Below, piece by piece: positions 5,890 through 62,976 of a DNA stretch of 64,000 nt. A program made the position numbers and the translations under genes. The stretch is from Bacteroidales bacterium (lineage in GTDB: Bacteria > Bacteroidota > Bacteroidia > Bacteroidales > Marinilabiliaceae). The stretch is taken from the NCBI GenBank assembly GCA_024401365.1, contig JAKSLE010000010.1, forward strand, positions 1-64,000. The letters run 5' to 3'. Position 1 is the stretch's first letter. Every line of letters begins with the position of its first letter. The notes beneath the pieces are model-generated. The model was not told the DNA's origin. It saw nothing but the letters and a program-made list of their open reading frames with translations, and did not search any database.

Positions 5890-5946
5890 GTGGTATCGGG
5901 CTACTATAAGGGAGATATAAGGTTGCTCGCAGTTTTTTTATTTTTT
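5890..5946 (-). repeat. Dispersed A-tract / TGCGAGCAA / 11-bp-unit element, copy 1
   Basis: On the minus strand this copy has an A-rich tract (5946-5933), then CTGCGAGCAA, then CCTTATATCTC (5922-5912), CCTTATAGTAG (5911-5901) and CCCGATACCAC (5900-5890). It lies between the 3' end of the deacetylase gene and the ribD promoter. Confidence 0.75.
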
Positions 5947-5957
5947 GGGGATAAGAA

Positions 5958-5986
5958 AAGGCTTGAGTCGGGAGGACTCAAGCCTT
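5958..5986 (-). terminator. Rho-independent terminator of the polysaccharide deacetylase gene
   Basis: A perfect 12-bp stem (AAGGCTTGAGTC) with a 5-nt loop lies 20 nt beyond the stop of the deacetylase gene and is followed by TTTCTTAT on the minus strand. Confidence 0.85.
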
Positions 5987-6007
5987 GGTATTTATGGGTA
6001 GAAGGGA

Positions 6008-6973
6008 TTAGATTTCTACTGCTTCGCCGTTAGGGATTATGTCGACGTACTTAGGGCCGTCGGCTGTTGGGATAAGTATAGTTAGAGGGAGGTTGAAAAT
6101 CTCTGGGTCGAGAGAGCGGAGAGTCAGAGAGACTTTCGCTTTACCGTCGGCGTTACAAACCTTGATTTTGACGTCGTTGCACTCGTAGATGTAGCGAGCC
6201 ACGTCGCCCATTGTAGCCACCCAGTATACGGAGCTATTATCCTGGAGGTACTGGAGGCTCTTACGGATTTCCTCGGAAGGGAATGGAGAGTATCCTGTGC
6301 CCTCATCTATTTCGTGGAAGAGGAGGTTGGACCATCCGCCCTTAGCGCGAGTATTCTCGAATATTGTCTGGAGGCTCTCGGCTGTAGTGCTATTGAAAAC
6401 GCTACCGAGTGCGTGAGAGCTTACATTGGTAAAATCGATAGGAATAGAATCGTTGAGGCCCATATCTATACGTCCGTCGCAGTGGCGAGCTACGATATAA
6501 TCGTCGGTAACCAACTGTATATTCTTAGGAGGGATACAGAAAGGGTAAGCTATGGTGATGCACTTATAATTGCCACCTATGACCTCCTCGATAGTAGTGC
6601 GAGAGTCGTGAAGCTCGTGTTGGGCATCTATATCGGACAACTCACCGAGGTTAGGGTGAGAGACGGTATGAGAACCTATTTCGTGGCCCTGAGCAGCTGC
6701 TGACTTGATAGCGTCGTAGTTGCCGTTGAGCCAGTTGATGACAGGGAAGAAAGTACCCTTCATATTGAACTCGTTGAGGATAGGTACGACTGTTGAGAAC
6801 TGGTTAGGGCAGTTATCATCGAAAGTGTAGCTGATAGCTGCTGTTCGACCCTGAGGCCATTTACAAATGGTTATGTCCTCGGCGGATAAGCCATCGGGCG
6901 AGCTGGCATTGAAGTTGCAAGCTGACGCCAATCCGGCGATACCTGCGAGAGTTAAGAATTTGAACGTTTTCAT
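6008..6973 (-). CDS. Polysaccharide deacetylase (NodB domain), lipoprotein
   Basis: This 321-residue protein has a lipoprotein signal ending in GLASAC, so it is exported and lipid-anchored. The NodB/CE4-type domain begins with ISYTFDDN and includes the metal-binding SHTVSHPNL motif. FDDN carries the first Asp pair and SHTVSH the two His ligands expected of a metal-dependent N- or O-deacetylase. The C-terminal 60 residues look like a small beta domain. The start was set at MKTFKFLTLAG because that gives a proper signal peptide. It lies 31 nt behind dnaE and may be read from the same transcript. The substrate is unknown. Confidence 0.88.
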   Translation of the reverse strand: MKTFKFLTLAGIAGLASACNFNASSPDGLSAEDITICKWPQGRTAAISYTFDDNCPNQFSTVVPILNEFNMKGTFFPVINWLNGNYDAIKSAAAQGHEIGSHTVSHPNLGELSDIDAQHELHDSRTTIEEVIGGNYKCITIAYPFCIPPKNIQLVTDDYIVARHCDGRIDMGLNDSIPIDFTNVSSHALGSVFNSTTAESLQTIFENTRAKGGWSNLLFHEIDEGTGYSPFPSEEIRKSLQYLQDNSSVYWVATMGDVARYIYECNDVKIKVCNADGKAKVSLTLRSLDPEIFNLPLTILIPTADGPKYVDIIPNGEAVEI

Positions 6974-7004
6974 GTTATATGTAGTAATTGGTTGAATATG
7001 CTTA

Positions 7005-10000
7005 TTAACTAACCGACAGGGAGATTTCTGGATTAGCGTCCACAAAGCTAACAAAATTACCGCTAACTGGTATGTTAATTATTTTTTCTGGGTAAAGAAT
7101 TACGTTGCGATTATTTTCCTCGTCGTAGATTTGGAAGTTGATATTAAGATATTTCTTCTTTTCTTCGGCGGAGGCGGTCACTTGGACCTTTTCGCTATTT
7201 TTTTCAATAAAATCGGCTATTGTTTCTATCAGTTCGTTGTTGATATCGTTGATATTCATGGACAAAGTAGCCTTGGTATAGCTATTAGTCTGGGACAACT
7301 CAGAGAGGTAGCATACGTTGGTGTAGGTTATACGAGGTTTATTGTCGTATTTGCCACGTCCTATATTACCCGAGATACAGACGTACGAATCCTTGGTAAA
7401 GAAGTGTCCGAAAGATGCGTGGTCCTTAGCGAAGAAGCGCAGATCATTTTTACCCTCGGCGTCCTCTATAGTAACCAAAGTCCAAGGATTACCCTTTTGA
7501 GATATTTTAGTTTCGGAATTGATCACTATACCAGCCGTAACGAATTTTTTACCCACCATAGACTCGAGGTTAGCCTCCACGAGTTGAGTTACAGGGGTAT
7601 TGACAAGGTAACGCATTTCGAACTTATACTCATCCAGAGGGTGAGCGGTGAGATAGATACCTACTACCTCTTTTTCCTTATTAAGTCGTTCGAGGTCGGT
7701 CCAATGGTAATCGACGTTTGGCAATTCTGGGCGAGAAATAGATACGCTCAGGGAGTCGCCGAAGAGAGAATTCTGGCTTTCCTCCTGATCCTTTTGGAAA
7801 GACGAGCCATAGTTGACCAATATTTCCGAACCCGACATACCCTTTTGAGGGCTTATGGCGAAGAATTTTTCGCGAGGTATAGGATTAGGGAACATATCGA
7901 AAGCGCCAGCGATAGCCAAGGCCTCGACAGTCTTACGGTTACAAGCCTTTAGGTCGACGCGTTCCACGAAATCGTATATATCCTTAAATTCGCCCCCTTC
8001 GGTACGAGCCTTTATGATAGCCTCCACAGCGCCTTCGCCCACGCCCTTGACGCCGGAGAGGCCGAAAAGGATTTCGCCCTTAGCGTTAACGGTAAAGTTA
8101 AGATCAGACTCATTGACGTTAGGGCCCTTTACGGTAAGCTTCATTTCCTTACACTCATCCATCAGCTTAGTTACCTCGGTAATGGTATCCTTATTGAGCG
8201 TAAGGTTAGCAGCCATATACTCAGCGGGGTAGTGAGCCTTGAGGTATCCTGTCTGGTAAGCCACCCAAGCGTAGCACGTAGAGTGAGACTTATTGAATGC
8301 GTAAGAAGCGAAAGCCTCCCAATCCTTCCATATTTTTTCCAGCACGGCGGGGTCGTGGCCATTAGCCTGACCACCCTCGAGGAACTTTTTCTTCAAGCTC
8401 TCCAGGATAGCGAACAACTTTTTACCCATAGCCTTACGGAGCATATCCGACTCGCCTCGGGTGAAGTTAGCCAGCAAACGAGACAAGAGCATGACCTGCT
8501 CCTGGTATACGGTAACGCCATACGTATCCTTGAGGTAAGTTTCCATGACAGGGATATCGTATGTAATAGGTTCGCGACCATGCTTACGTTCGATAAAAGT
8601 AGGGATATAAGCGATAGGGCCTGGACGGTAGAGGGCGTTCATGGCGATGAGGTCGGTAATGACAGTAGGTTGCAGTTCCCTCAAGTATTTCTGCATACCA
8701 GGGGATTCGAACTGGAAGATACCGATGGTGCGGCCCTCGGAGAAAAGTTTATAAGTCAGTTCATCGTCGATAGGGATAGCCTCCATATCGATATCGATGC
8801 CATGTCTTTTTTTGATATTACGGCAAGCCTCCTTTTGGAGTGTCAAAGTAGAGAGGCCCAAGAAGTCCATTTTGATAAGGCCCACGGACTCCACCACGTG
8901 ACCATCATACTGAGTCACGACGATATCCTTATCGGTAGCCTTATCCTTGATAGTTGCCATAGGGGCGAACTTAGCGAGGTCGTCGGCGCCGATGATTACG
9001 CCGCAAGCGTGAATACCAGTCTGGCGGATAGTATCCTCGAGGTTTTCGGCGTACTCCAATGTTTCGGCCAGGTGTATACCCTGTTCTCCGTTACGAGCTG
9101 CTTTAAGGCCGTCGATATACTGGAAGCAATTATGGAGGTTGATTTTAGGTTTTTTACCCTTTTTATCCTTAGGTACGGAGTCGTCGAACTCCTTTTCGGG
9201 CACCATTTTACAGAGGGCGTTTGACATATCGAGAGGAATTTTCTGGATACGGCAAAGGTCCTTGATACTAGACTTAGTAGCCATAGTACCATAAGTGATG
9301 ATATGAGCCACGTGATCGAATCCGTATCGGTCGGTGACCCAATCCAGCACTTTACCGCGGCCGCAATCCTCGAAATCCACGTCGATATCAGGGAGGGAGA
9401 TACGGTCGGGGTTTAGGAAACGTTCGAACAGGAGGTCGTACTTCAGAGGGTCGACGTTGGTAATCCACAAGCAATATGCCACTACGGAGCCTGCTGCGGA
9501 GCCACGACCAGGGCCCACCCATACGTCGAGTTCCTCGCGAGCGCCGCGGATATAATCGGCCACGATAAGGAAGTAACCAGGGAAACCCATGGTTTTCATG
9601 ATATGGAGCTCGAAAGTAATACGATCCTTCACCACATCTGGGGGGACGGGTTGGCCATCAGGGCCTATACACTTATCGAAATTTTCGCCGTAACGTTTAA
9701 CGGCGCCCTCCCAAGCCAGTTTATTAAGATAATCGGCCTCGAGTTTGATACGGTAAAGCTTTTCGTAGCCGCCGATTTTTTTGATTTTGCTCTCGGCATC
9801 CTCCTGAGACATAACGACATTACCCTTTTCGTCCTGGGTAAACTCGTCGAAGAGCTGTTTTTCGGTAAATTTTGCTCTATACTCCTCCTCGGTACCGAAC
9901 TCCTCGGGGATAGGGAACTTAGGCATGATAGGGCCTGAGTCGATATTATAGGTCTCCACCTTATCCACTATTTCCTGGGTATTTTCCAGGGCTTCGGGGA

Positions 10001-10961
10001 TGTCGGCGAAGATAGCTGCCATTTCGTCGGGCGTTTTGAGCCACTCCTGTTTTGAATAGTGTAGACGCCTTGGGTCGTCGTAATCGGACTGAGTAGAAAG
10101 GCAAATCAGTCGGTCGTGCGCTTCGGCGTGAGCCTCCTCCACGAAATGGACGTCGTTGGTAGCCACGACCTTGATATTATGTTTGCGAGCCAGTTCGATG
10201 AGGTGGGGGTTGACCAGCTGTTGTTTTTCGTAGAAAGACTTTTCGCCGCCAGGTTTATCTGTTTTATGGCGTTGGAGTTCGATATAATAATCGTCTCCGA
10301 AGAGGTTTTTGAACCAGAGGACGGTCTCCTCTGCCTTATCCATTTTATTGCCGAGGATATACTGAGGCACCTCTCCGCCGAGGCAAGCAGAGCAAACGAT
10401 GAGGCCCTCGTGGCATTGGGTAAGGAGTTCCTTATCTATACGCGGTTTACCATAGAAGCCACGTGTCCATGAGTCGGACACCAGACGGCAAAGGTTTTTG
10501 TAACCTGTTTTATTTTTAGCGAGGAGGATGAGGTGCCAACCGCTACGGTCGACAGTAGACTCTCTACCCGTCTCTGGGTCGACGGCCTTCATAGTTTTAT
10601 CCATATCCTCCATACGGCGGCGGGCGCAGTAGGCCTCTACGCCTATGATAGGTTTAAAAGGCACGTAAGCCTCCATAGCGGCTTTTAGTTCCTCGCATTT
10701 TTTCTCCAGTTCAGGTTTTTTGGACTCATCCTCACACTTTGAGAGGTCATCGCAAGCCTCCTTCCAAGCTTTTTTGGCGGCGCCATTTATTTTATTGGAA
10801 GTATCGAAGAGGTCTTTGATGCCGTACATTACGCCATGATCTGTAAGGGCCATAGCGTTCATACCATTCTTCTGGCATTTCTTTATAAGGTCGGGGACCT
10901 TGGACATGCCATCGAGGATGGAGTATTGTGAATGTACATGTAGGTGTGTGAAGTTTGTCAT
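7005..10961 (-). CDS. dnaE: DNA polymerase III alpha subunit
   Basis: This is the replicative DNA polymerase catalytic subunit, 1318 residues from MTNFTHLHVHSQ. An N-terminal PHP domain (HLHVHSQYS) is followed by the polymerase palm, which holds GPGRGSAAGS and the catalytic PDIDVDFED. A helix-hairpin-helix region (FGLSGVKGVGEGAVEAI) and an OB-fold of the nucleic-acid-binding type follow near residues 1140-1230. A longer reading with 21 extra residues is possible but lacks homology-like content. No frame damage is seen. Confidence 0.97.
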   Translation of the reverse strand: MTNFTHLHVHSQYSILDGMSKVPDLIKKCQKNGMNAMALTDHGVMYGIKDLFDTSNKINGAAKKAWKEACDDLSKCEDESKKPELEKKCEELKAAMEAYVPFKPIIGVEAYCARRRMEDMDKTMKAVDPETGRESTVDRSGWHLILLAKNKTGYKNLCRLVSDSWTRGFYGKPRIDKELLTQCHEGLIVCSACLGGEVPQYILGNKMDKAEETVLWFKNLFGDDYYIELQRHKTDKPGGEKSFYEKQQLVNPHLIELARKHNIKVVATNDVHFVEEAHAEAHDRLICLSTQSDYDDPRRLHYSKQEWLKTPDEMAAIFADIPEALENTQEIVDKVETYNIDSGPIMPKFPIPEEFGTEEEYRAKFTEKQLFDEFTQDEKGNVVMSQEDAESKIKKIGGYEKLYRIKLEADYLNKLAWEGAVKRYGENFDKCIGPDGQPVPPDVVKDRITFELHIMKTMGFPGYFLIVADYIRGAREELDVWVGPGRGSAAGSVVAYCLWITNVDPLKYDLLFERFLNPDRISLPDIDVDFEDCGRGKVLDWVTDRYGFDHVAHIITYGTMATKSSIKDLCRIQKIPLDMSNALCKMVPEKEFDDSVPKDKKGKKPKINLHNCFQYIDGLKAARNGEQGIHLAETLEYAENLEDTIRQTGIHACGVIIGADDLAKFAPMATIKDKATDKDIVVTQYDGHVVESVGLIKMDFLGLSTLTLQKEACRNIKKRHGIDIDMEAIPIDDELTYKLFSEGRTIGIFQFESPGMQKYLRELQPTVITDLIAMNALYRPGPIAYIPTFIERKHGREPITYDIPVMETYLKDTYGVTVYQEQVMLLSRLLANFTRGESDMLRKAMGKKLFAILESLKKKFLEGGQANGHDPAVLEKIWKDWEAFASYAFNKSHSTCYAWVAYQTGYLKAHYPAEYMAANLTLNKDTITEVTKLMDECKEMKLTVKGPNVNESDLNFTVNAKGEILFGLSGVKGVGEGAVEAIIKARTEGGEFKDIYDFVERVDLKACNRKTVEALAIAGAFDMFPNPIPREKFFAISPQKGMSGSEILVNYGSSFQKDQEESQNSLFGDSLSVSISRPELPNVDYHWTDLERLNKEKEVVGIYLTAHPLDEYKFEMRYLVNTPVTQLVEANLESMVGKKFVTAGIVINSETKISQKGNPWTLVTIEDAEGKNDLRFFAKDHASFGHFFTKDSYVCISGNIGRGKYDNKPRITYTNVCYLSELSQTNSYTKATLSMNINDINNELIETIADFIEKNSEKVQVTASAEEKKKYLNINFQIYDEENNRNVILYPEKIINIPVSGNFVSFVDANPEISLSVS

Positions 10962-10989
10962 TGAGTATATAGCTATTAGATTCTGTGAG

Positions 10990-10997
10990 CGAAGGTA
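10990..10997 (-). promoter_or_regulatory. -7 element of the dnaE promoter
   Basis: The minus strand reads TACCTTCG 29 nt before the chosen dnaE start. This supports the downstream start over an upstream ATG that would lie before the promoter. No -33 box at good spacing is obvious. Confidence 0.45.
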
Positions 10998-11209
10998 TTG
11001 CCAGGGTATGCAAAATTTCGTCACAGGGTGTAAATAGTTTTATGCAAAGATAATTTTTTTGTTGTTGCCACGGATTGTGGGGAGTAATTTTGTCGGTTTT
11101 TGTTTTGTAAGTATGAAATCGACAAGGAAAATTTTACTATGTACAGATAAAATATGCTTGTTGACCGACGAAGTGGGCAAAAAGCGGACAGTGCGGATTT
11201 TTGGGGTGT

Positions 11210-11217
11210 TATATTTG
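11210..11217 (+). promoter_or_regulatory. -7 element for the unknown ORF at 11.2 kb
   Basis: TATATTTG lies 32 nt before the ATG at 11249 and overlaps an earlier ATG in the same frame, which makes 11249 the better start. Confidence 0.5.
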
Positions 11218-11248
11218 TGGCGAGAAAGAGACATTAATTAACCAGATT

Positions 11249-11746
11249 ATGGCGAAAATAGAAATCAAGCATAAATGTATTATGGTAGCTCGTGAGGCTG
11301 CCAGGAAGGACTCTAGGTCGAGAGAGACAGGGAATAGTGTGTTTATAAAGAGGTACTATGGATCATATAGGTTGCTCGCAGTTTTTGTAAGTGAGAGTCA
11401 GCGGAGTTGCAGGGATATGTTTGCGGAGGCGCAGAAGATGGCCTCGAGGGAGTTGAAGCAGTGGAACAGGAAGAGACATTGGGAGAGGATGGCCAGGAAG
11501 CATAAGATCAGGGGTGCTCATAGGATGGCTGTTTCGTGGTATTATGGGATGTTGAAGGAGAATGGTGGGGTGATGAATGAGGAGATGGTGAATGAGAGTA
11601 GGAGATGTGATGGTTTTGTTAGGCGTATGGTCGAGCCTACTTTGAATGAGAGTAGGTTGAGCTGGGAAAGTAGGAGTATGAAGAGTGATGGTATGGTTAG
11701 GCGGCGGAAAGCTGTGCTGGGGGGATTGTGTTATTGGGAGATATGA
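11249..11746 (+). CDS. Basic protein of unknown function
   Basis: I do not recognise this 165-residue protein. It is strongly basic and Arg/Lys-rich with no signal peptide or membrane segment. The central part (SRELKQWNRKRHWERMARKHKIR) looks helical and could bind nucleic acid, but that is only inference from charge. Codon use is purine-rich (AGG, GAG, ATA), like the neighbouring plus-strand genes. Residues about 27-46 are encoded by the reverse complement of a dispersed intergenic repeat, which is unusual and leaves some doubt that the whole frame is a conserved gene. A recognisable promoter and a long uninterrupted frame favour a real gene. Confidence 0.55.
   Translation: MAKIEIKHKCIMVAREAARKDSRSRETGNSVFIKRYYGSYRLLAVFVSESQRSCRDMFAEAQKMASRELKQWNRKRHWERMARKHKIRGAHRMAVSWYYGMLKENGGVMNEEMVNESRRCDGFVRRMVEPTLNESRLSWESRSMKSDGMVRRRKAVLGGLCYWEI
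11328..11386 (-). repeat. Dispersed A-tract / TGCGAGCAA / 11-bp-unit element, copy 2 (inside an ORF)
   Basis: On the minus strand a short A-tract and CTGCGAGCAA (core 11380-11372) are followed by CCTATATGATC, CATAGTACCTC, TTTATAAACAC and ACTATTCCCTG in 11-nt register. On the plus strand the same DNA encodes YRLLAVF of the unknown protein. Confidence 0.65.
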
Positions 11747-11799
11747 TAAGAAGTTGTGGATTGTTTTTGCGGGGCTCGAGCCTACGCCGAACGGGAAGG

Positions 11800-12537
11800 T
11801 TATTCGACGTAGTCGAAAGTCAACCCATTGAACTTAAGGGTATGGGTAGTACTGTTCTCGAAATCATTGATATTGAACAGTTCGACTTCGATGTTTTTTC
11901 CCTTTTGAGGCAATTTGAAAGACATCATAAAGTTGGTATCAGGCATATTGTTGAAAGGCGACTCAGTCATAGGCACTAACATCTGAGAGTCGGCGTCGTA
12001 GATGTAAGCCAAGAATCCCGATTCGACTGCGAGGCGGACATCTTTGTTTTCAGGATCTGGATGGCACACGCGGACTTTGCGCCAAATATTGGTACGTTCG
12101 GTGACAACCTGATTAGTATATAAGAATTCGCTTACGTAGAAAGCCAAGATAAACAATTTCTTACCATCGGTACGGTTCCAGTAAGATGCTTTGAGGCGGT
12201 ATGCGCCATCGCCCTCCTCGCTATATGAGAAGTATCCGTTAGCCTTATCGAGGGTAGGTTCACTAGGCCATCCGTATTCACCCTCGATGTTGAGAGCGGA
12301 TATGAACTGCTCTATGCCGACACCGCCATTGACTTTGAAAGATTTATGGTACTCGTCGAAGAAATATGGGAATTGATGTTGTTCGTAACTCTCTTCATAG
12401 GCAGTTTCGTCGGTATCGGTATCGGCAGAAGTTATTTCGCTGTTGGTATTATCTGATGCGGGGGCATTATTATTTGTGTTATTGGAGCAGCTTGTCATGA
12501 TTGCTCCGAAGAGGAGAGCTAAAACAACTCTTTTCAT
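11800..12537 (-). CDS. Lipoprotein of unknown function
   Basis: The 245-residue product starts with a lipoprotein signal (lipobox IMTSC, Cys near residue 17). A low-complexity Asn/Asp/Thr/Glu-rich linker of about 35 residues follows, then a compact domain rich in aromatic residues and beta-strand patterns. I do not recognise the domain. It has its own promoter, divergent from the HAD gene. It is probably anchored to a periplasmic or outer-membrane face. Confidence 0.8.
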   Translation of the reverse strand: MKRVVLALLFGAIMTSCSNNTNNNAPASDNTNSEITSADTDTDETAYEESYEQHQFPYFFDEYHKSFKVNGGVGIEQFISALNIEGEYGWPSEPTLDKANGYFSYSEEGDGAYRLKASYWNRTDGKKLFILAFYVSEFLYTNQVVTERTNIWRKVRVCHPDPENKDVRLAVESGFLAYIYDADSQMLVPMTESPFNNMPDTNFMMSFKLPQKGKNIEVELFNINDFENSTTHTLKFNGLTFDYVE

Positions 12538-12576
12538 AATATTGTAGTATTAAAATTGAACCCTGATGTATGTGCG

Positions 12577-12584
12577 CGAAGGTA
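12577..12584 (-). promoter_or_regulatory. -7 element of the 12.5-kb lipoprotein gene
   Basis: The minus strand reads TACCTTCG 40 nt before the start. It lies back to back with the plus-strand -7 box at 12595, so the two genes share a divergent control region. Confidence 0.5.
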
Positions 12585-12594
12585 ATAAAATTAT

Positions 12595-12602
12595 TATATT
12601 TG
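12595..12602 (+). promoter_or_regulatory. -7 element of the HAD-tatD operon
   Basis: TATATTTG sits 22 nt before the HAD gene start. Confidence 0.55.
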
Positions 12603-12624
12603 GATACATAAAAAGGGACGATCT

Positions 12625-13766: not shown

Positions 13767-13774
13767 AAAAAGGA

Positions 13775-13810
13775 AATGGTCGCAGAAGAGGGAATCTCTC
13801 TACGACCATT
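13775..13810. terminator. Bidirectional terminator between tatD and fhs
   Basis: An 8-bp outer stem (AATGGTCG with its complement) continues into an imperfect GAGGG/TCTCT inner stem. On the minus strand it is followed by a T-run for fhs. It lies between the convergent ends of tatD and fhs. Confidence 0.75.
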
Positions 13811-13832
13811 GGTATGCTATGAATAGAATTGC

Positions 13833-22983: not shown

Positions 22984-23033
22984 AAAAAAATTGCGAGCAA
23001 CCTTATATCTGCCTTATATCAGCCTTATACCTC
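22984..23033 (+). repeat. Dispersed A-tract / TGCGAGCAA / 11-bp-unit element, copy 3
   Basis: Seven A, then TTGCGAGCAA (22991-23000), then CCTTATATCTG, CCTTATATCAG and CCTTATACCTC, three clear 11-bp units. It lies between the convergent 3' ends of prmC and the DUF805 gene. Confidence 0.85.
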
Positions 23034-38584: not shown

Positions 38585-38628
38585 CGTAATTTTAATGCGT
38601 TTATTATCTGTAAATCTACCCCCATTTC

Positions 38629-38683
38629 TCTTAACGCTCTCTTAACACTCTATATAGACAGCGACTACACAGCAACTACCCAC
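38629..38683 (+). repeat. Coreless run of 11-bp units
   Basis: TCTTAACGCTC, TCTTAACACTC, TATATAGACAG, CGACTACACAG and CAACTACCCAC follow each other in exact 11-nt register. They match the tail of the dispersed element but lack a TGCGAGCAA core. This lies downstream of the DprA-like gene. Confidence 0.5.
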
Positions 38684-39860: not shown

Positions 39861-39944
39861 ATAAAAAACTGCGATGAACCTTAAGACACTCTTATACCTC
39901 AGACTACTCACACATATACCACACACACACCCAAAACTACTCAC
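39861..39944 (+). repeat. Dispersed element, degenerate-core copy with six 11-bp units
   Basis: Six A, then CTGCGATGAA (two changes from the core), then CCTTAAGACAC, TCTTATACCTC, AGACTACTCAC, ACATATACCAC, ACACACACCCA and AAACTACTCAC in exact 11-nt register. This is the longest run of units in the window. Confidence 0.65.
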
Positions 39945-46507: not shown

Positions 46508-46516
46508 TTGCTCGCA
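46508..46516 (-). repeat. Isolated TGCGAGCAA core without A-tract
   Basis: The 9-mer core occurs on the minus strand between the LD-carboxypeptidase gene and the tRNA-Gln promoter. The A-tract is displaced and the downstream 11-bp units are not clear, so it may be a decayed copy or chance. Confidence 0.3.
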
Positions 46517-46551
46517 GCCAATAATTTTTTGCAAAAAATAGCCTATAATGT

Positions 46552-46622: not shown

Positions 46623-46693
46623 TGTCCTATAGTATAATGGTAGTACAGAAGATTCTGGTTCTTTTAGTCAGGGTTCGAATCCTTGTGGGACAA
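46623..46693 (+). tRNA. tRNA-Gln (anticodon CTG)
   Basis: The acceptor stem TGTCCTA pairs with TGGGACA (one G-U), with T8 and A9 in place. The anticodon stem GAAGA/TCTTT encloses the loop TTCTGGT, so positions 34-36 are CTG and it reads CAG codons. The T-arm has GGTTCGAATCC. The CCA end is not encoded. Length 71 nt. Confidence 0.9.
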
Positions 46694-46734: not shown

Positions 46735-46805
46735 TGCCCAATAGTATAATGGCAGTACAGAAGATTTTGGTTCTTTTAGTCCGCGTTCGAATCACGGTTG
46801 GGCAA
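46735..46805 (+). tRNA. tRNA-Gln (anticodon TTG)
   Basis: The acceptor stem TGCCCAA pairs with TTGGGCA. The anticodon stem GAAGA/TCTTT encloses TTTTGGT, giving anticodon TTG, which reads CAA and CAG. Most of the body matches the upstream tRNA-Gln except the acceptor and T-arm, so the two arose by duplication. No encoded CCA. Length 71 nt. Confidence 0.9.
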
Positions 46806-50323: not shown

Positions 50324-50397
50324 GGTCCCATAGCTCAGTTGGTTAGAGCACCTGACTCATAATCAGGGAGTCACAGGTTCAAGCCCTGTTAGGACCA
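50324..50397 (+). tRNA. tRNA-Met (CAT), elongator type
   Basis: The acceptor GGTCCCA pairs with TAGGACC with one C-A mismatch. The D-arm is TAGCTCAGTTGGTTAGAGC. The anticodon stem CCTGA/TCAGG encloses CTCATAA. CAT can also belong to tRNA-Ile2 with a lysidine-modified anticodon. The body looks more like elongator Met, but I cannot exclude Ile2. CCA is not encoded. Confidence 0.82.
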
Positions 50398-54060: not shown

Positions 54061-54105
54061 GCCATTTCTCATTCTCATGCCTCATTTTTACTTCGCTATT
54101 ATTCG

Positions 54106-54263
54106 AAAAACTGCGAGCAACAACTACCTTCTATACTATTAGCGACTGATCACTAAATAAAAAAACTGCGAGCAACAACTACCTTCTATACTATCAGCGA
54201 CTGATCACTAAATAAAAAAACTGCGAGCAACATATAGGCTCTCTTGTATCTCTATATAACTAT
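54106..54263 (+). repeat. Dispersed element, tandem array of three copies (55-bp period)
   Basis: CTGCGAGCAA occurs at 54111, 54166 and 54221, exactly 55 bp apart. The first two units differ at a single base. Each is a 10-bp core, three 11-bp units (33 bp) and a 12-bp A-rich spacer. The third copy keeps the A-tract and core but its units (CATATAGGCTC, TCTTGTATCTC, TATATAACTAT) have diverged. Confidence 0.85.
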
Positions 54264-54927: not shown

Positions 54928-54977
54928 TATACTCCCCCTTATAAATGTGGTGTGGGTAAAATATTTTCCGTTCTCCC

Positions 54978-55007: not shown

Positions 55008-55026
55008 TGAAAAAATATTAATAAGC

Positions 55027-55070: not shown

Positions 55071-55102
55071 ACGTTTAACAGATAATAATTAGACTATAAA
55101 AT

Positions 55103-55576: not shown

Positions 55577-55602
55577 TATATAATAGGTATACTATATAAG
55601 GT

Positions 55603-55998: not shown

Positions 55999-56054
55999 AT
56001 CAAGAAGTATCACGAAATGACTAAATAGTATTATAGTCTTTACTCTCTATTCTA

Positions 56055-56062
56055 TACTTTTG
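56055..56062 (+). promoter_or_regulatory. Possible -7 element of the mannan operon
   Basis: TACTTTTG lies 38 nt before the GH130 start. There is no clear -33 box. Confidence 0.35.
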
Positions 56063-56099
56063 CTCTCGTTCTTAATTATAGTGTTTACCATTAATCGTC

Positions 56100-57272
56100 A
56101 TGGCTATATCATTATACAACGAGCGCAGAGCGCAAATAGAGAGGGAACATGAGGAGCTCCTTTCTCGTCCTAACGAGATGCTTTTCTCTGTTAACGGAGT
56201 CTATAATAAGTACGCGAACCCCGTGGTTACGCGTGAGCATGTGCCCCTGAAGTGGCGTTACGATTTCGACGAGAAACGTAACCCCTACTTTATGGAGCGC
56301 ATTTCTTTTAATGCCACTTTCAATGCGGGCGCTATGAAGTGGAACGGTAAGTACATCATGGTCGTACGTACCGAGTCCGTCGACCGTAAGTCGTTCTTCG
56401 CTATAGCCGAGAGCCCTAATGGTATAGATAACTTCCGTTTCTGGGAACGCCCTATATCTATGCCTCAAATCCCCGGTAATCCAGATACTAACGTATACGA
56501 TATGCGCCTCACTCAACACGAGGATGGCTGGATATATGGCGTGTTCTGCTCAGAACGTAAAGACCCTAACGCCCCCGAGGGCGACACAAGTAGCGCCGTG
56601 GCAGCCGCTGCTATCGCGCGTACCAAGGACCTGAAGTCTTGGGAACGACTCCCTGATCTCATATCTCATGCAGGCCAACAGCGCAACGTGGTCTTGTTCC
56701 CTTATTTCGTAGATGGTAAGTACGCTTTCTATACCCGCCCTCAGGATGGCTTCATCGATACAGGTTCGGGCGGAGGTATCGGCTGGGGCCTTACCGCCGA
56801 TATCACTAAAGCCGAGGTCTTGGATGAACTGATCATCGATGCCAAAACCTACCACACCGTCTATGAGGTGAAGAATGGTATGGGTCCCGCCCCTATAAAG
56901 ACTAAGTATGGTTGGCTTAACTTGGCCCATGGCGTGCGTAATACTGCAGCGGGCCTCCGCTACGTGCTTTATATGTTTATGACGGATCTCGAGAAACCTT
57001 GGGTCGTAACTCATAAGCCTGCGGGACACTTCCTGGCTCCTTATGGCTCGGAACGCGTGGGCGATGTCTCTAATGTTACTTTCTCTAACGGATGGATCGA
57101 GGACCCCGATGGTAAGGTCTTTATCTATTACGCTTCTAGCGATACCCGTATGCATGTGGCTACTACTACAGTCGACCAACTTGTGGATTATTGCTTGAAT
57201 ACGCCCGAGGATGACTTGTATTCTCATATGTCTGTCGAGCGTATCAACCGCCTTATCGATATGAATAACTAA
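56100..57272 (+). CDS. GH130 4-O-beta-D-mannosyl-D-glucose phosphorylase
   Basis: This 390-residue enzyme splits mannosyl-beta-1,4-glucose with phosphate into mannose-1-phosphate and glucose in the cytoplasm. The sequence fits GH130 subfamily 1: NPYFMERISFNATFNAGA, the catalytic Asp region YDMRLTQHEDGW and GGGIGWGLTADI. It is followed by GH26 and a cellobiose 2-epimerase, the same trio as the mannan pathway described in Bacteroides fragilis, which supports the substrate call. Confidence 0.93.
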   Translation: MAISLYNERRAQIEREHEELLSRPNEMLFSVNGVYNKYANPVVTREHVPLKWRYDFDEKRNPYFMERISFNATFNAGAMKWNGKYIMVVRTESVDRKSFFAIAESPNGIDNFRFWERPISMPQIPGNPDTNVYDMRLTQHEDGWIYGVFCSERKDPNAPEGDTSSAVAAAAIARTKDLKSWERLPDLISHAGQQRNVVLFPYFVDGKYAFYTRPQDGFIDTGSGGGIGWGLTADITKAEVLDELIIDAKTYHTVYEVKNGMGPAPIKTKYGWLNLAHGVRNTAAGLRYVLYMFMTDLEKPWVVTHKPAGHFLAPYGSERVGDVSNVTFSNGWIEDPDGKVFIYYASSDTRMHVATTTVDQLVDYCLNTPEDDLYSHMSVERINRLIDMNN

Positions 57273-57291
57273 TTTTAATTTGTCCCCCCCT

Positions 57292-58311
57292 ATGTCTTTG
57301 CATAAACTATTTTCGGTATTGACTATGGCAGCACTGGTAACAGTGTCTGCTGTAGCTCAATATGAGCCTATGAACCCTAACGCAACTCCCGAGGCTAAGG
57401 CTCTTCTTGCTAAATTGTACGAACTTCGCGGTAAGTGCTGCCTCACTGGCCAACATTCTTATCCGCTTTATTCTGATATCTACATGGAAAGGGTGGAGAA
57501 CTTGGTCGAAGGTAGCCATCCCGTAGTCTTCGGTCAGGATTTCGGTTACTCTAAACATAATTCTCTCGATGGTATAAATTTCCGCCAGCGTTCTATCGAT
57601 AATGCTATCAAATGGCATAAGCGTGGAGCTATTATTACTTTCATGTGGCACGCCGTCCCTCCTACAGTGGAGGGTAACTATACTATATGGAAGGGCGAGA
57701 ATGGCGTCCAGAGCGAACTTACTAACGCCCAGTGGAAGGACCTCCTAACCCCAGGTACCGAAATCCATAAGCGCTGGGAGGCTCAGGTGGATGTAATAGC
57801 TTTCTTCTTGCGCCAACTCCAGGATGAGAATATCCCCGTAATATGGCGCCCTTATCACGAAATGAATGGCAACTGGTTCTGGTGGGGTAAGCGCCCAGGT
57901 AAGGATGGTTACCAGGCTCTCTATCGTATGCTCTACGATCGACTTACTAATTATCATCACCTGAATAACCTCCTTTGGGTCTTTAACGCCAACGAGGTCA
58001 ATGGCTTGAATGTGCCTAATTATAAGGATTTCTTCCCAGGTCACGATATCGTGGATATCTTGGCTACTGATGTGTACAACCAGAATTATCAGGATAAGGA
58101 TTATGAACTTCTCTCCGAATTGGCTAATGGTAAAATTATAGCCTTGGGCGAGTGCGGTAAGTTGCCTACAGAGAAAATCCTTAAAAAGCAGAAGAATTGG
58201 AGCTGGTTCATGTGCTGGAGCGAGTTCATAGAGACCGCTAATGAGTGGGGACCTCGTAAGGAGCTTTACGATTCTGAGTGGACTGTAACTTTGGAGGAGT
58301 TTAATAAGTAA
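57292..58311 (+). CDS. GH26 endo-beta-1,4-mannanase
   Basis: This 339-residue secreted enzyme cuts mannan to mannobiose. The signal peptide (LFSVLTMAALVTVSAVAQ) has no lipobox, so it is periplasmic or released. The acid/base Glu lies in WRPYHEMNGNWFWWG and the nucleophile Glu in IALGECGKL. The start is put at MSLHKLF, as the extra MSPP of a longer reading precedes no useful signal. It ends 7 nt before the epimerase ATG. Confidence 0.95.
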   Translation: MSLHKLFSVLTMAALVTVSAVAQYEPMNPNATPEAKALLAKLYELRGKCCLTGQHSYPLYSDIYMERVENLVEGSHPVVFGQDFGYSKHNSLDGINFRQRSIDNAIKWHKRGAIITFMWHAVPPTVEGNYTIWKGENGVQSELTNAQWKDLLTPGTEIHKRWEAQVDVIAFFLRQLQDENIPVIWRPYHEMNGNWFWWGKRPGKDGYQALYRMLYDRLTNYHHLNNLLWVFNANEVNGLNVPNYKDFFPGHDIVDILATDVYNQNYQDKDYELLSELANGKIIALGECGKLPTEKILKKQKNWSWFMCWSEFIETANEWGPRKELYDSEWTVTLEEFNK

Positions 58312-58318
58312 TTGGGTG

Positions 58319-59503
58319 ATGAACAGGAATATCATACCTGAACTGGAACAGGAACACTCTAATATCCTCCATTATTGGATCAATAATATGCAGGATGAGA
58401 AACAGGGTGGCTTCTACGGCTGCCGTGATTCTCAGGGTAATATTGTCGAAAACGCTCCTAAGGGGGCTATCCTTAATGGCCGTATGTTGTGGTCTTTTTC
58501 TTCTGGTTACCGCATTTTCGGTAAGCCTGAGTATAAGGCAGCAGCGGATAGGGTGTACAATTATATAGTAACCCATTTCTACGATAGTACGAATGGCGGC
58601 TTCTTCTGGTCGCTTAATGCCGATGGTACCCCACTGGATACAAAAAAACAGGCGTATGCCGAGGGGTTTATTATCTATGGATTGTCTGAGTATTATCGCG
58701 CTACGGGCAACCAACGGGCTCTTGATCTGGCCGAGGAGACTTGCCGTCTTATCGAAAAGCATTTCCGTGATTATAAGGATGGGGGATATACCGAGGCTAC
58801 AGCTGCCGATTGGTCCCCTATAGCGGATGTGCGCCTTTCTGATAAGGAGGAGAATACTCCTAAAACAATGAATACTCACCTCCATATCATAGAGCCTTAC
58901 GTAAACTTGTATCGCGCAAAACCGTCTGCCGAACTTAAGGAGTCTATATCTCATCTGTTGGATATATTTACTTCTAAAATCATCAGCGCCAAGACAGGAC
59001 ATTTTATATTGTTCTTCGATATGGATTGGTCTGTTAAGTCTGATATCGATTCGTACGGCCACGATATCGAGGGCGCTTGGCTCCTCTATGAGGCTGCTGA
59101 GGTTATCGGCGATAAAAAGTGGATGGACATTGTCCGCCCAATGGCTAAACGTTTGGTGGATATTACTTTGTCGGAGGGCCTCGATCGTAACTCGTCTATC
59201 TTTTACGAGAAGGTCGGTACCCACCTCGATACCGATAAGCATTGGTGGCCTCAGGCTGAAACGCTTTGCGGATTGGCCGATACTTGGCGCCTGACTGGCG
59301 ATCAGAGGTATCTGGATATATTATATAATGTATGGGACTACATAAAGTCTAATATTTCTGCTCCACGCGCTAACGGTGAATGGCTGTGGCGCGTAGATAA
59401 GGATGGCAGGGATATATATACCGACGAAATCGCTGGCTTCTGGAAGTGCCCTTACCATAACTCGCGCGCAATGCTCGAGGTTATCCATCGTCTTAAACAT
59501 TAA
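58319..59503 (+). CDS. Cellobiose/mannobiose 2-epimerase (AGE family)
   Basis: This 394-residue (alpha/alpha)6-barrel enzyme turns mannobiose into mannosyl-glucose, the substrate of the GH130 phosphorylase. Conserved catalytic His residues are in DSYGHDIEGAWLL, KHWWPQAETL and PYHNSRAMLEV, with MNTHLHIIEPY before them. It has no signal peptide and is cytoplasmic. The ATG at 58319 is preferred over a GTG three bases upstream. Confidence 0.93.
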   Translation: MNRNIIPELEQEHSNILHYWINNMQDEKQGGFYGCRDSQGNIVENAPKGAILNGRMLWSFSSGYRIFGKPEYKAAADRVYNYIVTHFYDSTNGGFFWSLNADGTPLDTKKQAYAEGFIIYGLSEYYRATGNQRALDLAEETCRLIEKHFRDYKDGGYTEATAADWSPIADVRLSDKEENTPKTMNTHLHIIEPYVNLYRAKPSAELKESISHLLDIFTSKIISAKTGHFILFFDMDWSVKSDIDSYGHDIEGAWLLYEAAEVIGDKKWMDIVRPMAKRLVDITLSEGLDRNSSIFYEKVGTHLDTDKHWWPQAETLCGLADTWRLTGDQRYLDILYNVWDYIKSNISAPRANGEWLWRVDKDGRDIYTDEIAGFWKCPYHNSRAMLEVIHRLKH

Positions 59504-59512
59504 TTTCTTCCC

Positions 59513-60553
59513 ATGATGAGGTTCTTTCTCTCCATTCTCTCCTTGGCCGCCCTCATAGGGTGCTCAGAGTCTAAAGTGCAGTGCTACAATGGTTCTGATA
59601 GCGCAATATCATATGTGGGCCGTAGTATTGCTACCGCCGATACTTTGGGACCTCGCCAATGGGCAGCGGGCTCATATTTCGCTTTCGCTTTCGATGGTAA
59701 CGAGTGTACATTGAACCTCATAGATGAACAGATATGGAGTGGTACGGGTTTCAATTACCTGGAACTGGTTGTCGATGGTAGGTGTACTCGCATCTGTACA
59801 GATACTACCTTGAACGTCATAGTGTTAGATAGCCTCTTGTCTGATGCCCCAACTCACGACGTGCTTGTTTGTAAGGATACCGAGAGCTCTCATGGCTATA
59901 TCCAACTCCAAAGTATAATAACAAGAAATCTGCGAGCAAATAGGGAACTGCCTGAATGCTCTCCTATAATAGAGTTTATAGGCAACTCTATCACGTGCGG
60001 AGCTGAGGCTTATTGCGATGAGGTCCCTTATGGTACCGGTAGATGGGGCGACCGACACCGTGCTTACTTGGCGTATGGCCCACGTGTGGCTCGTATGATG
60101 AATGCTCGCTGGATGCTGACTTCTGTTTCTGGTATAGGCCTCATCCATTCTTGCTGCGATATGGATATCGTTATGCCGCAGGTCTATGATAAGGTGAGCT
60201 TGCGCAATAATGAGTATGAATACAACTTCGCAGAGCAGGCTAATATAGTTTGTATCTGCTTGGGCCAGAACGATGGTATACAGGATTCTACAACTTTCTG
60301 TAACGCTTACGTCGATTTTATCTCTACCGTGCGTAAACATAACCCCGAGGCACGTATCGTCTTGCTCTCTTCTCCTATGGCCGACGATAATCTGAGGGCT
60401 TGGCAGGAGCGTATCCTTTTGTCTGTCGAGAATCAAGTGGAGTCTGTCGAACATTATTTCTTTTCTCGCCAGTGGAATAACGGAGGCGGCGACCACCCCG
60501 ATTGTAACGAGCATGCTGAAATCGCAGAGGAGTTGTACAACTATTTGAGATGA
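59513..60553 (+). CDS. CE2-type SGNH acetylesterase, lipoprotein
   Basis: The 346-residue product has a lipoprotein signal (AALIGC, Cys about residue 17), an N-terminal beta domain, and an SGNH hydrolase domain. The nucleophile Ser is in EFIGNSITCG, and the His/Asp pair is likely in GGDHPDCNEHAEIA. This two-domain layout matches carbohydrate esterase family 2, which removes 6-O-acetyl groups from mannan and other hemicelluloses. Within the mannan cluster it would deacetylate acetylated glucomannan. A copy of the dispersed core lies inside the coding sequence. Confidence 0.85.
   Translation: MMRFFLSILSLAALIGCSESKVQCYNGSDSAISYVGRSIATADTLGPRQWAAGSYFAFAFDGNECTLNLIDEQIWSGTGFNYLELVVDGRCTRICTDTTLNVIVLDSLLSDAPTHDVLVCKDTESSHGYIQLQSIITRNLRANRELPECSPIIEFIGNSITCGAEAYCDEVPYGTGRWGDRHRAYLAYGPRVARMMNARWMLTSVSGIGLIHSCCDMDIVMPQVYDKVSLRNNEYEYNFAEQANIVCICLGQNDGIQDSTTFCNAYVDFISTVRKHNPEARIVLLSSPMADDNLRAWQERILLSVENQVESVEHYFFSRQWNNGGGDHPDCNEHAEIAEELYNYLR
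59927..59972 (+). repeat. Dispersed-element core inside the CE2 coding sequence
   Basis: CTGCGAGCAA occurs at 59930-59939 with a weak A-rich lead-in. ATAGGGAACTG, CCTGAATGCTC and TCCTATAATAG follow in 11-nt register, but this DNA also encodes residues just before the catalytic Ser. It may be chance or a fixed insertion. Confidence 0.35.
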
Positions 60554-60637
60554 AGTTTTTATTCGGCTTTTTACCACATTGATTAAATTATGCGTAAATT
60601 TGCCACCGCATGATATTATCGCCGCATAGGTATCAAA

Positions 60638-61885
60638 GTGGAAAATTCACGTCCAAATATTGTACGTTTGTATAGAGAGCGACTGAATTTGTTGCTCGAT
60701 GTAACGCAGACTATTAACGAAAAACATAGTGTCGACGACTTGATGCAGGAGTTCGAGACACTTCTTCGTGAGGAGTTGGGCGTTGAACGCGTAATTGTCT
60801 ATACCCGTGGCGAGGGAAAATGGAACCAAATATTGGCTTGCGGCGTTTCTCAACGCCAGGCCGACGCTATCGACCCCGAACGCGATCTCCAGGGTATTAC
60901 TAAAATAGAAAATCTCGCCCTTACCGAACGCGAACGATTGCTGATATTCGACGCAGTAATCCCTCTCTACCACGAGTTTAAACTTATGGGCTATGTCCTC
61001 GTAGGCGATAAAGGCGAGGGCGATGGTATTTCCCCAACTCTGCGAAATCTTAAGTATATCCAGATTCTCGCAAACCTTATCATCGTATTTATAGAGAATA
61101 AAAAGATGCAGATGAGCCTCCTTAAACAGGAGAGCCTCAAACATGAGTTCGAAATCGCTACCGAAATCCAACGAAGCCTTGTTCCAAAGGATTCGGAGAT
61201 GCTCCGTACTTCGTTCCTTTCCGTACGCTCCCTCTATAAACCTCACCATGCCGTGGGCGGCGACTACTACGACGTGCTGCCGCTCTCCCCATATAGCGTG
61301 GGATTCTGTATCGCCGACGTAAGCGGTAAGGGTATGGGCGCAGCTTTGCTGATGTCCAACTTCCAGGCTATCGTGCGCTCTTTGTTTACGGCTAATATCT
61401 CTATGAGCCGCTTGGTGAAGGAACTTAATGAGCGCCTCAACTATAATTCCAAAAACGATAAGTTTATTACCGCTTTCTTAGGTAGATATAATAAAATAAC
61501 GGGTAGATTGACTTATGTCAACGCCGGCCACCTCTCCCCATTGCTTTGCGCCCCAGGTACCGAGGAAATACGCGAATTGGATACAGGCTCTATAGCTTTG
61601 GGTATGCTCGATGAAATGCCAGTAATCGAGGAGGGCTCAATCCGTATCCGTAAAGGTACCAAACTCGTCGCTTTCACAGATGGTCTCGTGGAGGTGGACG
61701 AAGGTAACCACGTGCGTAACTCTTTCTTGGAACTTAAAGAGATAATGAAGTCTTCAGAACATATCGACGAGGCTATGAAACGTATCGACGATATGGCTGA
61801 ACGCGACAAACTTAATGGTTTCGCTTTCGACGATATCTCCGTCCTCGGCTTAGAATTTATGCGTAACGGATCCTTGATTTTCTGA
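60638..61885 (+). CDS. GAF-domain / PP2C-type (SpoIIE) serine phosphatase
   Basis: This 415-residue regulator has a GAF-like sensor (about residues 20-165) and a PPM/SpoIIE phosphatase domain from about 190. The metal-binding motifs are HAVGGDYYDV, IADVSGKGMGAALLM, LVAFTDGLVEVDEG and FDDISVLGLEF. Enzymes of this kind usually act on an anti-sigma-factor antagonist in a partner-switching pathway. No STAS or anti-sigma kinase gene is adjacent. The first codon is GTG. No promoter is certain. Confidence 0.9.
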   Translation: MENSRPNIVRLYRERLNLLLDVTQTINEKHSVDDLMQEFETLLREELGVERVIVYTRGEGKWNQILACGVSQRQADAIDPERDLQGITKIENLALTERERLLIFDAVIPLYHEFKLMGYVLVGDKGEGDGISPTLRNLKYIQILANLIIVFIENKKMQMSLLKQESLKHEFEIATEIQRSLVPKDSEMLRTSFLSVRSLYKPHHAVGGDYYDVLPLSPYSVGFCIADVSGKGMGAALLMSNFQAIVRSLFTANISMSRLVKELNERLNYNSKNDKFITAFLGRYNKITGRLTYVNAGHLSPLLCAPGTEEIRELDTGSIALGMLDEMPVIEEGSIRIRKGTKLVAFTDGLVEVDEGNHVRNSFLELKEIMKSSEHIDEAMKRIDDMAERDKLNGFAFDDISVLGLEFMRNGSLIF

Positions 61886-61946
61886 TTTTTTTACCATTCT
61901 GTAAAATATTTCTTAGAAATTGTTTTTTTCTATTAAATGTTAGAGT

Positions 61947-61954
61947 TACATTTG
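61947..61954 (+). promoter_or_regulatory. -7 element of the 62-kb lipoprotein gene
   Basis: TACATTTG lies 45 nt before the start. Confidence 0.5.
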
Positions 61955-61999
61955 TACTTCGAAAAGTACTAATAAATAGGTTAAACAACTTTTACTGAA

Positions 62000-62809
62000 A
62001 TGAAGAACGCATTATTCTGTGCTTTGGCTCTAGCAGGAGCTGCATTCGCTGTTGGCTGCACTGGTTCATCAAATAATCAGGCCGCTCAAGTAACAAAGCA
62101 AAATATTGAGGAGAATGTACGCGAGTTCGTATACCCACTCCCTACAGCATTCGAAACTACAGAGATGCTCAACCGCATCGAAGCTCCTTATATCCAGATG
62201 CTCTGCAACGATCTCTCTAACGCAGAGGGCTACTTGACAGAGTACAAAAGAGCTCTTAACTTGGGTGTATATAGCGCCGATATGTGCTACGCTAGCACAT
62301 ACAACCAACAGCAGTCTATCATGGATTGCATGGACGTAGTTAAGAAACTTATCGATGCCCTCGATATGACTACAGGCGTTGATCCTGAACTCCCTAGCAA
62401 ACTTGAAAATAGCGAGAATAATAAGGATGAACTCACAAACCTTATCACTGAGTCATTCTACGATTCATATGATTACCTCAACCGTAACGACCGCGGCCCA
62501 GTCTCTATCCTTATCGTAGCTGGTAGCTGGATCGAGGCTGAGTATATCTCTACTCACATCGCTGAGGATACTTTCCAAAACAAGGAGATGGTTAAAATCA
62601 TCATGACTCAGCAGGAGCCTCTCGCTAAATTGATGGAGATCCTCGAGCAGAAGTTCGCCGATAACGAGTACGCTAACTCTATCAAGGCAGGCCTCAAGCC
62701 TCTCCACGATGTGTATAACTCAGTATCTGACGGCGGTATCACAGAGGAGCAAATCCAAAAGATCGCTTCTTTGGTTGAGACCCTCCGCGATAATATCACA
62801 GCAAAATAA
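62000..62809 (+). CDS. Lipoprotein of unknown function, helical
   Basis: The 269-residue product has a lipoprotein signal (FAVGC, Cys about residue 20). The mature part is almost wholly alpha-helical by residue pattern and acidic. I do not recognise the family. Two Cys-Met rich helices near residue 95-115 are notable. It has its own promoter and a strong terminator, so it is a single-gene unit. Confidence 0.8.
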   Translation: MKNALFCALALAGAAFAVGCTGSSNNQAAQVTKQNIEENVREFVYPLPTAFETTEMLNRIEAPYIQMLCNDLSNAEGYLTEYKRALNLGVYSADMCYASTYNQQQSIMDCMDVVKKLIDALDMTTGVDPELPSKLENSENNKDELTNLITESFYDSYDYLNRNDRGPVSILIVAGSWIEAEYISTHIAEDTFQNKEMVKIIMTQQEPLAKLMEILEQKFADNEYANSIKAGLKPLHDVYNSVSDGGITEEQIQKIASLVETLRDNITAK

Positions 62810-62838
62810 TTCATAGCTAACATAAAACTAACCAAATG

Positions 62839-62867
62839 GGTCAGATAACCGAGATGGTTGTCTGACC
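62839..62867 (+). terminator. Terminator of the 62-kb lipoprotein gene
   Basis: GGTCAGA pairs with TCTGACC, with AACC/GGTT inside, then TTTT. It lies 29 nt after the stop. Confidence 0.85.
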
Positions 62868-62914
62868 TTTTGCGTTTCATATACATTCTTCCCTCCCTCA
62901 TACCCCCTCTGAAA

Positions 62915-62976
62915 TTAAAAAATTGCGAGCAACCTTAACCCTCCCTTATATCTCCAACTATTCTCTCATAGACTAC
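62915..62976 (+). repeat. Dispersed A-tract / TGCGAGCAA / 11-bp-unit element, copy 8
   Basis: An A-tract and TTGCGAGCAA (62923-62932) are followed by CCTTAACCCTC, CCTTATATCTC, CAACTATTCTC and TCATAGACTAC in 11-nt register. Confidence 0.85.

What the first reader, a model, noticed from the sequence alone, without database searches (positions are those of the whole stretch)
5890..62976. Undescribed dispersed element: A-tract, core yTGCGAGCAA, then phased 11-bp units
At least six clear intergenic copies (5.9, 23.0, three near 54.1-54.3 and 62.9 kb) share an A-tract of 5-13 nt, the core (C/T)TGCGAGCAA, and a run of imperfect 11-bp units near CCTTATATCTC whose ends are mostly CTC, CAC, TAG or CTG. 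A degenerate-core copy at 39.9 kb has six units in register. A core also occurs inside two ORFs, and coreless unit runs lie at 38.6 and perhaps 50.2 kb. The 11-bp spacing is close to one DNA helical turn, so TA-rich steps would fall on one face beside an A-tract. I infer a DNA-binding or DNA-bending site (nucleoid protein, domain marker or recombination site) or a small mobile repeat. I know of no named Bacteroidota repeat of this form, but I cannot search.
Basis: partly seen in the sequence, partly recalled or inferred. Interest (0 to 1): 0.88.

Follow-up and report, generated by a model that had tools for sequence, protein, structure and literature searches.

The report
Dispersed DNA arrays in 11-base steps
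An uncultured gut bacterium and some of its close relatives carry short intergenic DNA arrays built in exact 11-base steps, and the same arrays sit in front of many genes of an unknown, much-duplicated family of small basic proteins, which suggests an undescribed DNA-binding system with lineage-specific target words.

Summary
TGCGAGCAA occurs 189 times in this 3.05-Mb genome against 17 for the reversed word; with an A-tract in front, 148 against 0. Downstream DNA has an 11-bp period (z 13.5); tandem cores lie at multiples of 11 bp in 24 of 25 pairs. Elements are mostly intergenic (45 of 51) in every gene orientation. This core is abundant in 4 of 15 genus members; two others have different cores, also beside 11-bp words.

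New here: these six species also carry 10-25 copies of an uncharacterised basic protein under purifying selection. In 48 of 67 genes of the four core carriers an element lies upstream (background 3-4%); 27 of 43 sit at one of two promoter distances, and core type follows protein subfamily. Solo elements lack that geometry. No inverted repeats were found, and a REP-type transposase in only one of the six species.

Best explanation: binding arrays for these proteins, which autoregulate at their own genes and occupy dispersed chromosomal sites. Binding is inferred, not shown.

The parts
5890..5945 (-). Element: A-tract 5933-5945, core CTGCGAGCAA 5923-5932, three 11-bp units 5922-5890
   Evidence: no element in G008 and another core in G013 at the same interval
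22984..23033 (+). Element: A-tract, core TTGCGAGCAA 22991-23000, three 11-bp units
38628..38682 (+). Coreless run of 11-bp units (CTCTTAACGCT-like)
   Evidence: top lag-11 score of the window
39862..39944 (+). Element: A-tract, variant core CTGCGATGAA 39869-39878, six units
   Evidence: the core type recurs in G000 and G013
54104..54263 (+). Triple element: cores 54111-54120, 54166-54175, 54221-54230, 55 bp (5 x 11) apart, with A-tracts and units
62916..62976 (+). Element: A-tract, core TTGCGAGCAA 62923-62932, four units
11249..11746 (+). Member (165 aa) of the expanded basic protein family; contains an exact core 11372-11381 within its coding sequence; no recognised element in the 330 bp upstream of this copy
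46508..46517 (-). Exact core without A-tract or units; not counted as an element
59930..59939 (+). Exact core inside an ORF (59513-60553); not counted as an element

Best explanation
The element is an oriented protein-binding array: an A-tract, a high-specificity core word, and then weaker sites repeated every 11 bp, so that subunits can line up on one face of the helix. The most likely binders are members of the linked, expanded family of small basic proteins. Each would regulate its own gene through the element upstream of it and would occupy the solo elements elsewhere in the chromosome, most likely in a nucleoid-organising or silencing role. SHOWN: the array architecture, the 11-bp register, the gene-family association, the preferred promoter distances at family genes, and core type following protein subfamily. 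INFERRED: that protein binds the array, that the binder is the family protein, autoregulation, and the role of the solo sites. My own estimates: some protein binds in helical phase 0.75; the binder is the family protein 0.5; nucleoid or silencing role of the solo sites 0.3.
For: Lag-11 periodicity with z 13.5 and 19.5; 24 of 25 tandem core spacings are multiples of 11. Within the genus, the six species rich in elements are those with many family genes: G000 20, G013 25, G008 16, G010 10, G006 12, G005 11. The six species with no family gene (G001, G004, G007, G009, G012, G014) have none of the AAAAN+core or AGTACGTGTTTC words; G004 (4) and G014 (1) have TGTCGAACATTC without an array. Of 67 distinct family genes in the core carriers, 43 have the element upstream in reversed order (units, core, T-tract, gene) and 5 in forward order, against 8 and 12 of 272 background genes. 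Distance from core to the -7 box is 23 bp in 7 of 7 TTACGAGCAA genes and 50 bp in 8 of 10 TTGCGAGCAA genes. Core type needs 8 changes on the protein tree, shuffled mean 27.2, 0 of 200 as low. The second clade has different cores beside 11-bp words. Proteins: pI 9.7-10.9 for the 27 of A1, net charge +16 to +22 over the first 104 aa; pN below pS in 253 of 253 pairs of 23 genes; compact alpha/beta model, mean pLDDT 82. Intervals occupied in G000 are more often occupied in G013: 5 of 9 against 6 of 40, Fisher p 0.019, 4 of the 5 in the same orientation; with the tRNA-Ser site that a length filter had dropped, 5 of 10, p 0.030.
Against: No DNA-binding domain is recognised: only sub-threshold matches (such as Cdc6_C E 0.1, DBINO 0.09, RecT 0.11, phrog_10348 0.003) and no PDB-sequence or clear fold match. 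19 of 67 core-carrier genes and 9 of 28 others have no recognised element, including the window's own copy and 5 of 9 in G010. Solo core types are not in proportion to gene core types: G000 has 5 genes with TTACGAGCAA but only 2 such elements in 0.91 Mb. In G006 most core copies are at family genes (6 of 10 and 4 of 4), so there the dispersed class is small. The core-blind scan gave no lag-11 peak in 60 kb of G010 or 74 kb of G006, and in G005 lags 7 and 14 were about as high or higher. The tree test only shows clustering, which co-inheritance without binding would also give.
Confidence: 0.45

Rival explanations
1. A non-autonomous mobile repeat, or a repeat mobilised by the family protein (REP/RAYT-like in logic), that happens to be built of 11-bp modules; family genes are the full-length copies and solo elements the truncated ones.
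For: Presence and absence at orthologous intervals; tandem copies; gene copies scattered mostly singly among unrelated neighbours; lineage-restricted abundance.
Against: No inverted repeats beyond control; Y1_Tnp not found in G013, G008, G010, G005 and G006 and once in G000; no nuclease or transposase domain above threshold in the protein; no clear target duplication at the sites compared; units diverge while the register stays exact; core type differs in place at two sites.
Confidence: 0.25
2. Operators of an ordinary regulator that binds 11-bp direct repeats (PhoB/OmpR type), the family genes being one part of its regulon.
For: [quoted passage not shown] family genes have preferred core-to-promoter distances.
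Against: 122 solo elements show no preferred promoter distance on either side; the elements occur in all orientation classes, including 12 of 45 between convergent genes; cores change with protein subfamily within one genome.
Confidence: 0.12
3. Intrinsically bent or flexible DNA (A-tract plus phased TA steps) used by a general factor such as gyrase or HU, without a cognate protein.
For: A-tract next to TA steps clustered at unit positions 4-6 in G000; intergenic position without orientation preference.
Against: A specific core is kept: after runs of five or more A in G000 the commonest next 8-mers are CTGCGAGC (30) and TTGCGAGC (12), the next has 4; the core differs between clades and subfamilies. 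General bending needs neither.
Confidence: 0.1

Closest known systems
PHO boxes and other PhoB/OmpR-family operators
   Same: Tandem 11-nucleotide direct repeat units of partly conserved sequence (PMC4415409, two passages)
   Different: Here there is an A-tract and a non-repeated core, over 100 sites per genome mostly without promoter geometry, lineage-specific words and a linked expanded gene family
REP/BIME/REPIN repeats with RAYT transposases (recalled; PMC3116915 seen in listing with the opening of its abstract)
   Same: Dispersed intergenic repeats, a cognate gene carrying the same repeats beside it, lineage-restricted abundance
   Different: No palindromes or inverted repeats above control; no recognised transposase domain in the linked protein; Y1_Tnp found in only one of the six species
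BrickBuilt MITE of Porphyromonas gingivalis (PMC4596501, abstract and outline)
   Same: Intergenic, tandemly modular repeat of a Bacteroidales genome, with promoter activity in part
   Different: BrickBuilt: 23-nt tandem repeats, small inverted-repeat ends, 19 copies in one strain; here 11-bp divergent words, no inverted ends, 148 A-tract+core copies
parC/ParR centromeres and replication iterons (recalled)
   Same: Direct repeats of about 11 bp bound in helical phase
   Different: Those are single loci next to partition or replication genes; here the sites are dispersed over the chromosome
Nucleoid proteins that nucleate at a strong site and spread, H-NS type (recalled)
   Same: Proposed logic only: strong core plus weaker phased sites bound by small proteins
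   Different: No sequence or fold relationship found, which the fold tool says is inconclusive

Membership tests
MITE | terminal inverted repeats | tested here: not met
   Longest exact inverted match between flanks: mean 4.91 over 121 elements against 4.97 in mixed-flank control
MITE | target-site duplication at filled sites compared with empty sites | tested here: inconclusive
   No clear duplication at the sites compared by eye, but intergenic DNA is too diverged for exact junctions
REP/RAYT | Y1 (HUH) transposase gene in the genomes with the repeat | tested here: not met
   PF01797: G013, G008, G010, G005, G006 0; G000 1 match over the cut-off. Draft genomes
REP/RAYT | palindromic (hairpin) repeat unit | tested here: not met
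   No inverted repeats above control between flanks; the core TTGC-GA-GCAA is only a short imperfect palindrome
PHO box / PhoB-OmpR operator | tandem 11-nt direct repeats | tested here: met
PHO box / PhoB-OmpR operator | sites placed at promoters of a regulon | tested here: not met
   122 solo elements show no preferred promoter distance and elements lie in all orientation classes; met at many family genes
PHO box / PhoB-OmpR operator | bound by a response regulator | not testable with these tools
   needs pull-down or footprinting
H-NS-like or other known nucleoid protein (for the linked protein) | sequence or fold relationship to a known nucleoid protein | tested here: inconclusive
Known structured RNA | match to an Rfam family at gathering score | tested here: not met
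   Window: three tRNAs only, none overlapping an element

The most novel reading that the evidence does not exclude
A chromosome-wide DNA-addressing system of a bacterial lineage: a self-regulating, expanding family of small DNA-binding proteins reads an array of 11-bp words (one word per helical turn) from a nucleating core, and clades have replaced the words together with the proteins while keeping the 11-bp grammar.
Probability: 0.3. Interest if true: 0.92.

Novelty: categorically new. Interest (0 to 1): 0.8.

Why it matters
If the proteins bind the arrays, this would be a natural example of protein-DNA recognition in which target words were replaced between sister clades while the spacing rule was kept, with ten or more paralogous protein-site pairs in each of several genomes to compare. 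It would add an undescribed family to the nucleoid or regulatory proteins of Bacteroidales. If the arrays turn out to be mobile, it would be a repeat family of unusual architecture with a partner gene that is not a recognised transposase. Both outcomes are testable with short probes and purified proteins.

Tried and rejected

Gene calls are from a simple codon-usage caller of mine. The cores were the search key, so their conservation in those alignments is by construction; one search is the test that does not assume the core. The names of the promoter motif TAnnTTTG, of ParR/parC, RAYT and H-NS, and of the PDDEXK nuclease-like gene are recalled. My notebook gives about 28 family genes for G000; the right number is 20.

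Full report
WHAT IS THERE. In the whole genome (G000, 3,048,414 bases, 76 contigs) TGCGAGCAA occurs 189 times and its reversed control 17 times; with AAAAN in front, 148 against 0. In a test that does not assume the core, the commonest 8-mers after runs of five or more A in 0.53 Mb of G000 are CTGCGAGC (30) and TTGCGAGC (12); the next has 4. I aligned 51 A/T-flanked copies from 451 kb: an A-tract of about AAATAAAAAAA, the core (the search key), then units whose best-kept positions are TA in the middle (around unit positions 5-6) and C(T/A)(C/G) at positions 9-11. The gene caller puts 46 of the 51 between genes; one of these is in the family gene that it missed, so 45. The 45 with a called gene on both sides (tandem copies counted apart, that one included) fall into all four orientation classes (12, 12, 11, 10), 12 of them between convergent genes.

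THE 11-BP REGISTER. Over 60 non-tandem arrays of G000 the base-match rate at lag 11 is 0.384 against 0.272 in shuffles (z 13.5), and at lag 22 0.374 (z 10.7). For 41 arrays of G013 lag 11 gives 0.466 (z 19.5). The A-tract side of G000 elements shows nothing at these lags; that of G013 shows a slight rise. Same-strand cores within 400 bp of each other lie 44, 55, 66, 77, 88, 99 or 121 bp apart in 24 of 25 pairs, all multiples of 11; the exception is 89. A scan that knows nothing of the core finds lag-11 stretches at 3.1 per 100 kb in G000, 5.2 in G013 and 3.5 in G005, but 0.5 in G004, which lacks the gene family; lags 10 and 13 are at 0-1.1 in these four. This scan is the weaker evidence: lags 9, 12 and 15 are often as high, as coding sequence would give; lags 7 and 14 are high in G005 (3.0, 5.0) and G004 (6.0, 5.5); and no lag-11 peak was found in the smaller samples of G010 (60 kb) and G006 (74 kb). 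Of the lag-11 peaks, 9 of 28 in G000 and 17 of 23 in G013 have a generalised core within 120 bp; the rest are coreless arrays.

OTHER CORES, SAME GRAMMAR. In the interval orthologous to the 5.9-kb element, G008 has none and G013 has core TTGCGATGAA followed by 11-bp units; upstream of the neighbouring gene G010 has that core twice, 44 bp apart. A generalised core finds 74 elements in 0.908 Mb of G000 and 50 in 0.446 Mb of G013, against 0 in reversed sequence. Two further species, G005 and G006, have none of the AAAAN+core words but have AGTACGTGTTTC 24 and 10 times (reversed control at most 2 in any genome; G002 has 2, the other 12 genomes 0), with 11-bp words leading up to it in many copies. 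21 of the 24 in G005 and 4 of the 10 in G006 lie away from family genes. They also have TGTCGAACATTC 11 and 4 times: in G005 9 of 11 away from family genes, with repeats 44 and 22 bp apart and, at two sites, 25 bp from the other core; in G006 4 of 4 at family genes. G004 (4) and G014 (1) also hold this word, without an array around it.

THE LINK. Of 95 distinct family genes with at least 150 bp of upstream sequence, 67 have a recognised core upstream: 48 of 67 in the four species with the first core (43 reversed, 5 forward) and 19 of 28 in the others. By species: G000 16 of 20, G013 18 of 24, G008 9 of 13, G010 4 of 9, and one gene of a carrier that I could not assign. Background in G000: reversed 8 and forward 12 of 272 genes. 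In the common arrangement the gene-strand order is 11-bp units, core, T-tract, a TAnnTTTG box (the Bacteroidota -7 motif, recalled), start codon. Distance from core to the first such box in the 43 reversed cases: TTACGAGCAA 23 bp in 7 of 7; TTGCGAGCAA 50 in 8 of 10, 51 and 71 in the others; CTGCGAGCAA 22-24 in five of ten, 50 in two, 61, 105, none in one; CTGCGAGTAA 24, 50, 50, 50, 95; TTACGATGAA 113 in one and none in 7 of 8; TTACGAGTAA none in 2; TTGCGAGTAA none in 1. So 27 of 43 are at 22-24 or 50-51. Core type follows the protein tree: 8 changes against a shuffled mean of 27.2, 0 of 200 as low (quick tree; near-copies contribute to clustering). Genes of the second clade have their own cores near the promoter. 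Of 122 generalised elements away from family genes (by a motif test), none has the box 22-24 bp from the core on the T-tract side, and two have it at 49 and 52, so the solo elements are not promoters of that design.

EVOLUTION. In 49 collinear G000-G013 intervals, 5 of the 9 occupied in G000 are also occupied in G013, against 6 of the 40 empty in G000 (Fisher p 0.019); 4 of the 5 have the same orientation, two of those four with a different core. A pair of elements upstream of tRNA-Ser that G013 lacks had been dropped by a length filter; with it 5 of 10, p 0.030. So sites are partly kept while sequence turns over, and partly gained or lost.

HOW IT MOST LIKELY WORKS. Direct repeats at one helical turn, a strong core, an A-tract and small basic proteins whose own upstream regions carry the array fit cooperative binding along one face of the DNA, with autoregulation at the gene and dispersed sites elsewhere. 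The binding step and the purpose of the solo sites are not shown. The strongest rival is a mobile repeat; it lacks inverted ends and, in five of six species, a Y1 transposase, but site turnover speaks for it. A PhoB/OmpR-type regulon shares the 11-nucleotide repeat (PMC4415409, passages) but not the distribution away from promoters.

KNOWN OR NEW. The closest described Bacteroidales repeat found is BrickBuilt, with 23-nt repeats, inverted ends and 19 copies in one strain (PMC4596501, abstract). The searches listed nothing that by title or opening abstract lines describes this element; papers outside the open-licence library were not searched. None of the known kinds that I tested meets all the features tested, hence the rating, with the caution that the mechanism is untested.

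Noticed in passing
G000 C12:94602, 30178 and 209, C12 near 239.7 kb; G013 C1:213218: A further coreless 11-bp array type, GTGCGTATGAC/CATACGCTCGT, nearly perfect over 66 bp at the best site; the four highest lag-11 hits without a core in G000.
   Followed up: no
window 11372-11381: The exact core and T-run lie inside the family gene and encode LLAVF; several relatives keep LLAV with E or K in place of F. Coding coincidence or a conversion by an element.
   Followed up: partly
L161 8350-9639 (G013 C1); also by L098 (G013 C7): A gene that looks like a PDDEXK nuclease (recalled, not searched) lies next to a family gene; at the C1 site this is in an insertion of about 2.3 kb where G000 has only a solo element.
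   Followed up: no
window 46623-46693, 46735-46805, 50324-50397: Three tRNA genes; the one exact core without array (46508) lies about 100 bp from the first.
   Followed up: no
G013 C23 near 29.9 kb: A further core variant, TTGCGACCAA, with 11-bp units, lies in the same interval as a TTACGATGAA element.
   Followed up: no
L203, L205, L209: Family genes with a forward-oriented element upstream (A-tract, core, units, gene), opposite to the common arrangement.
   Followed up: partly
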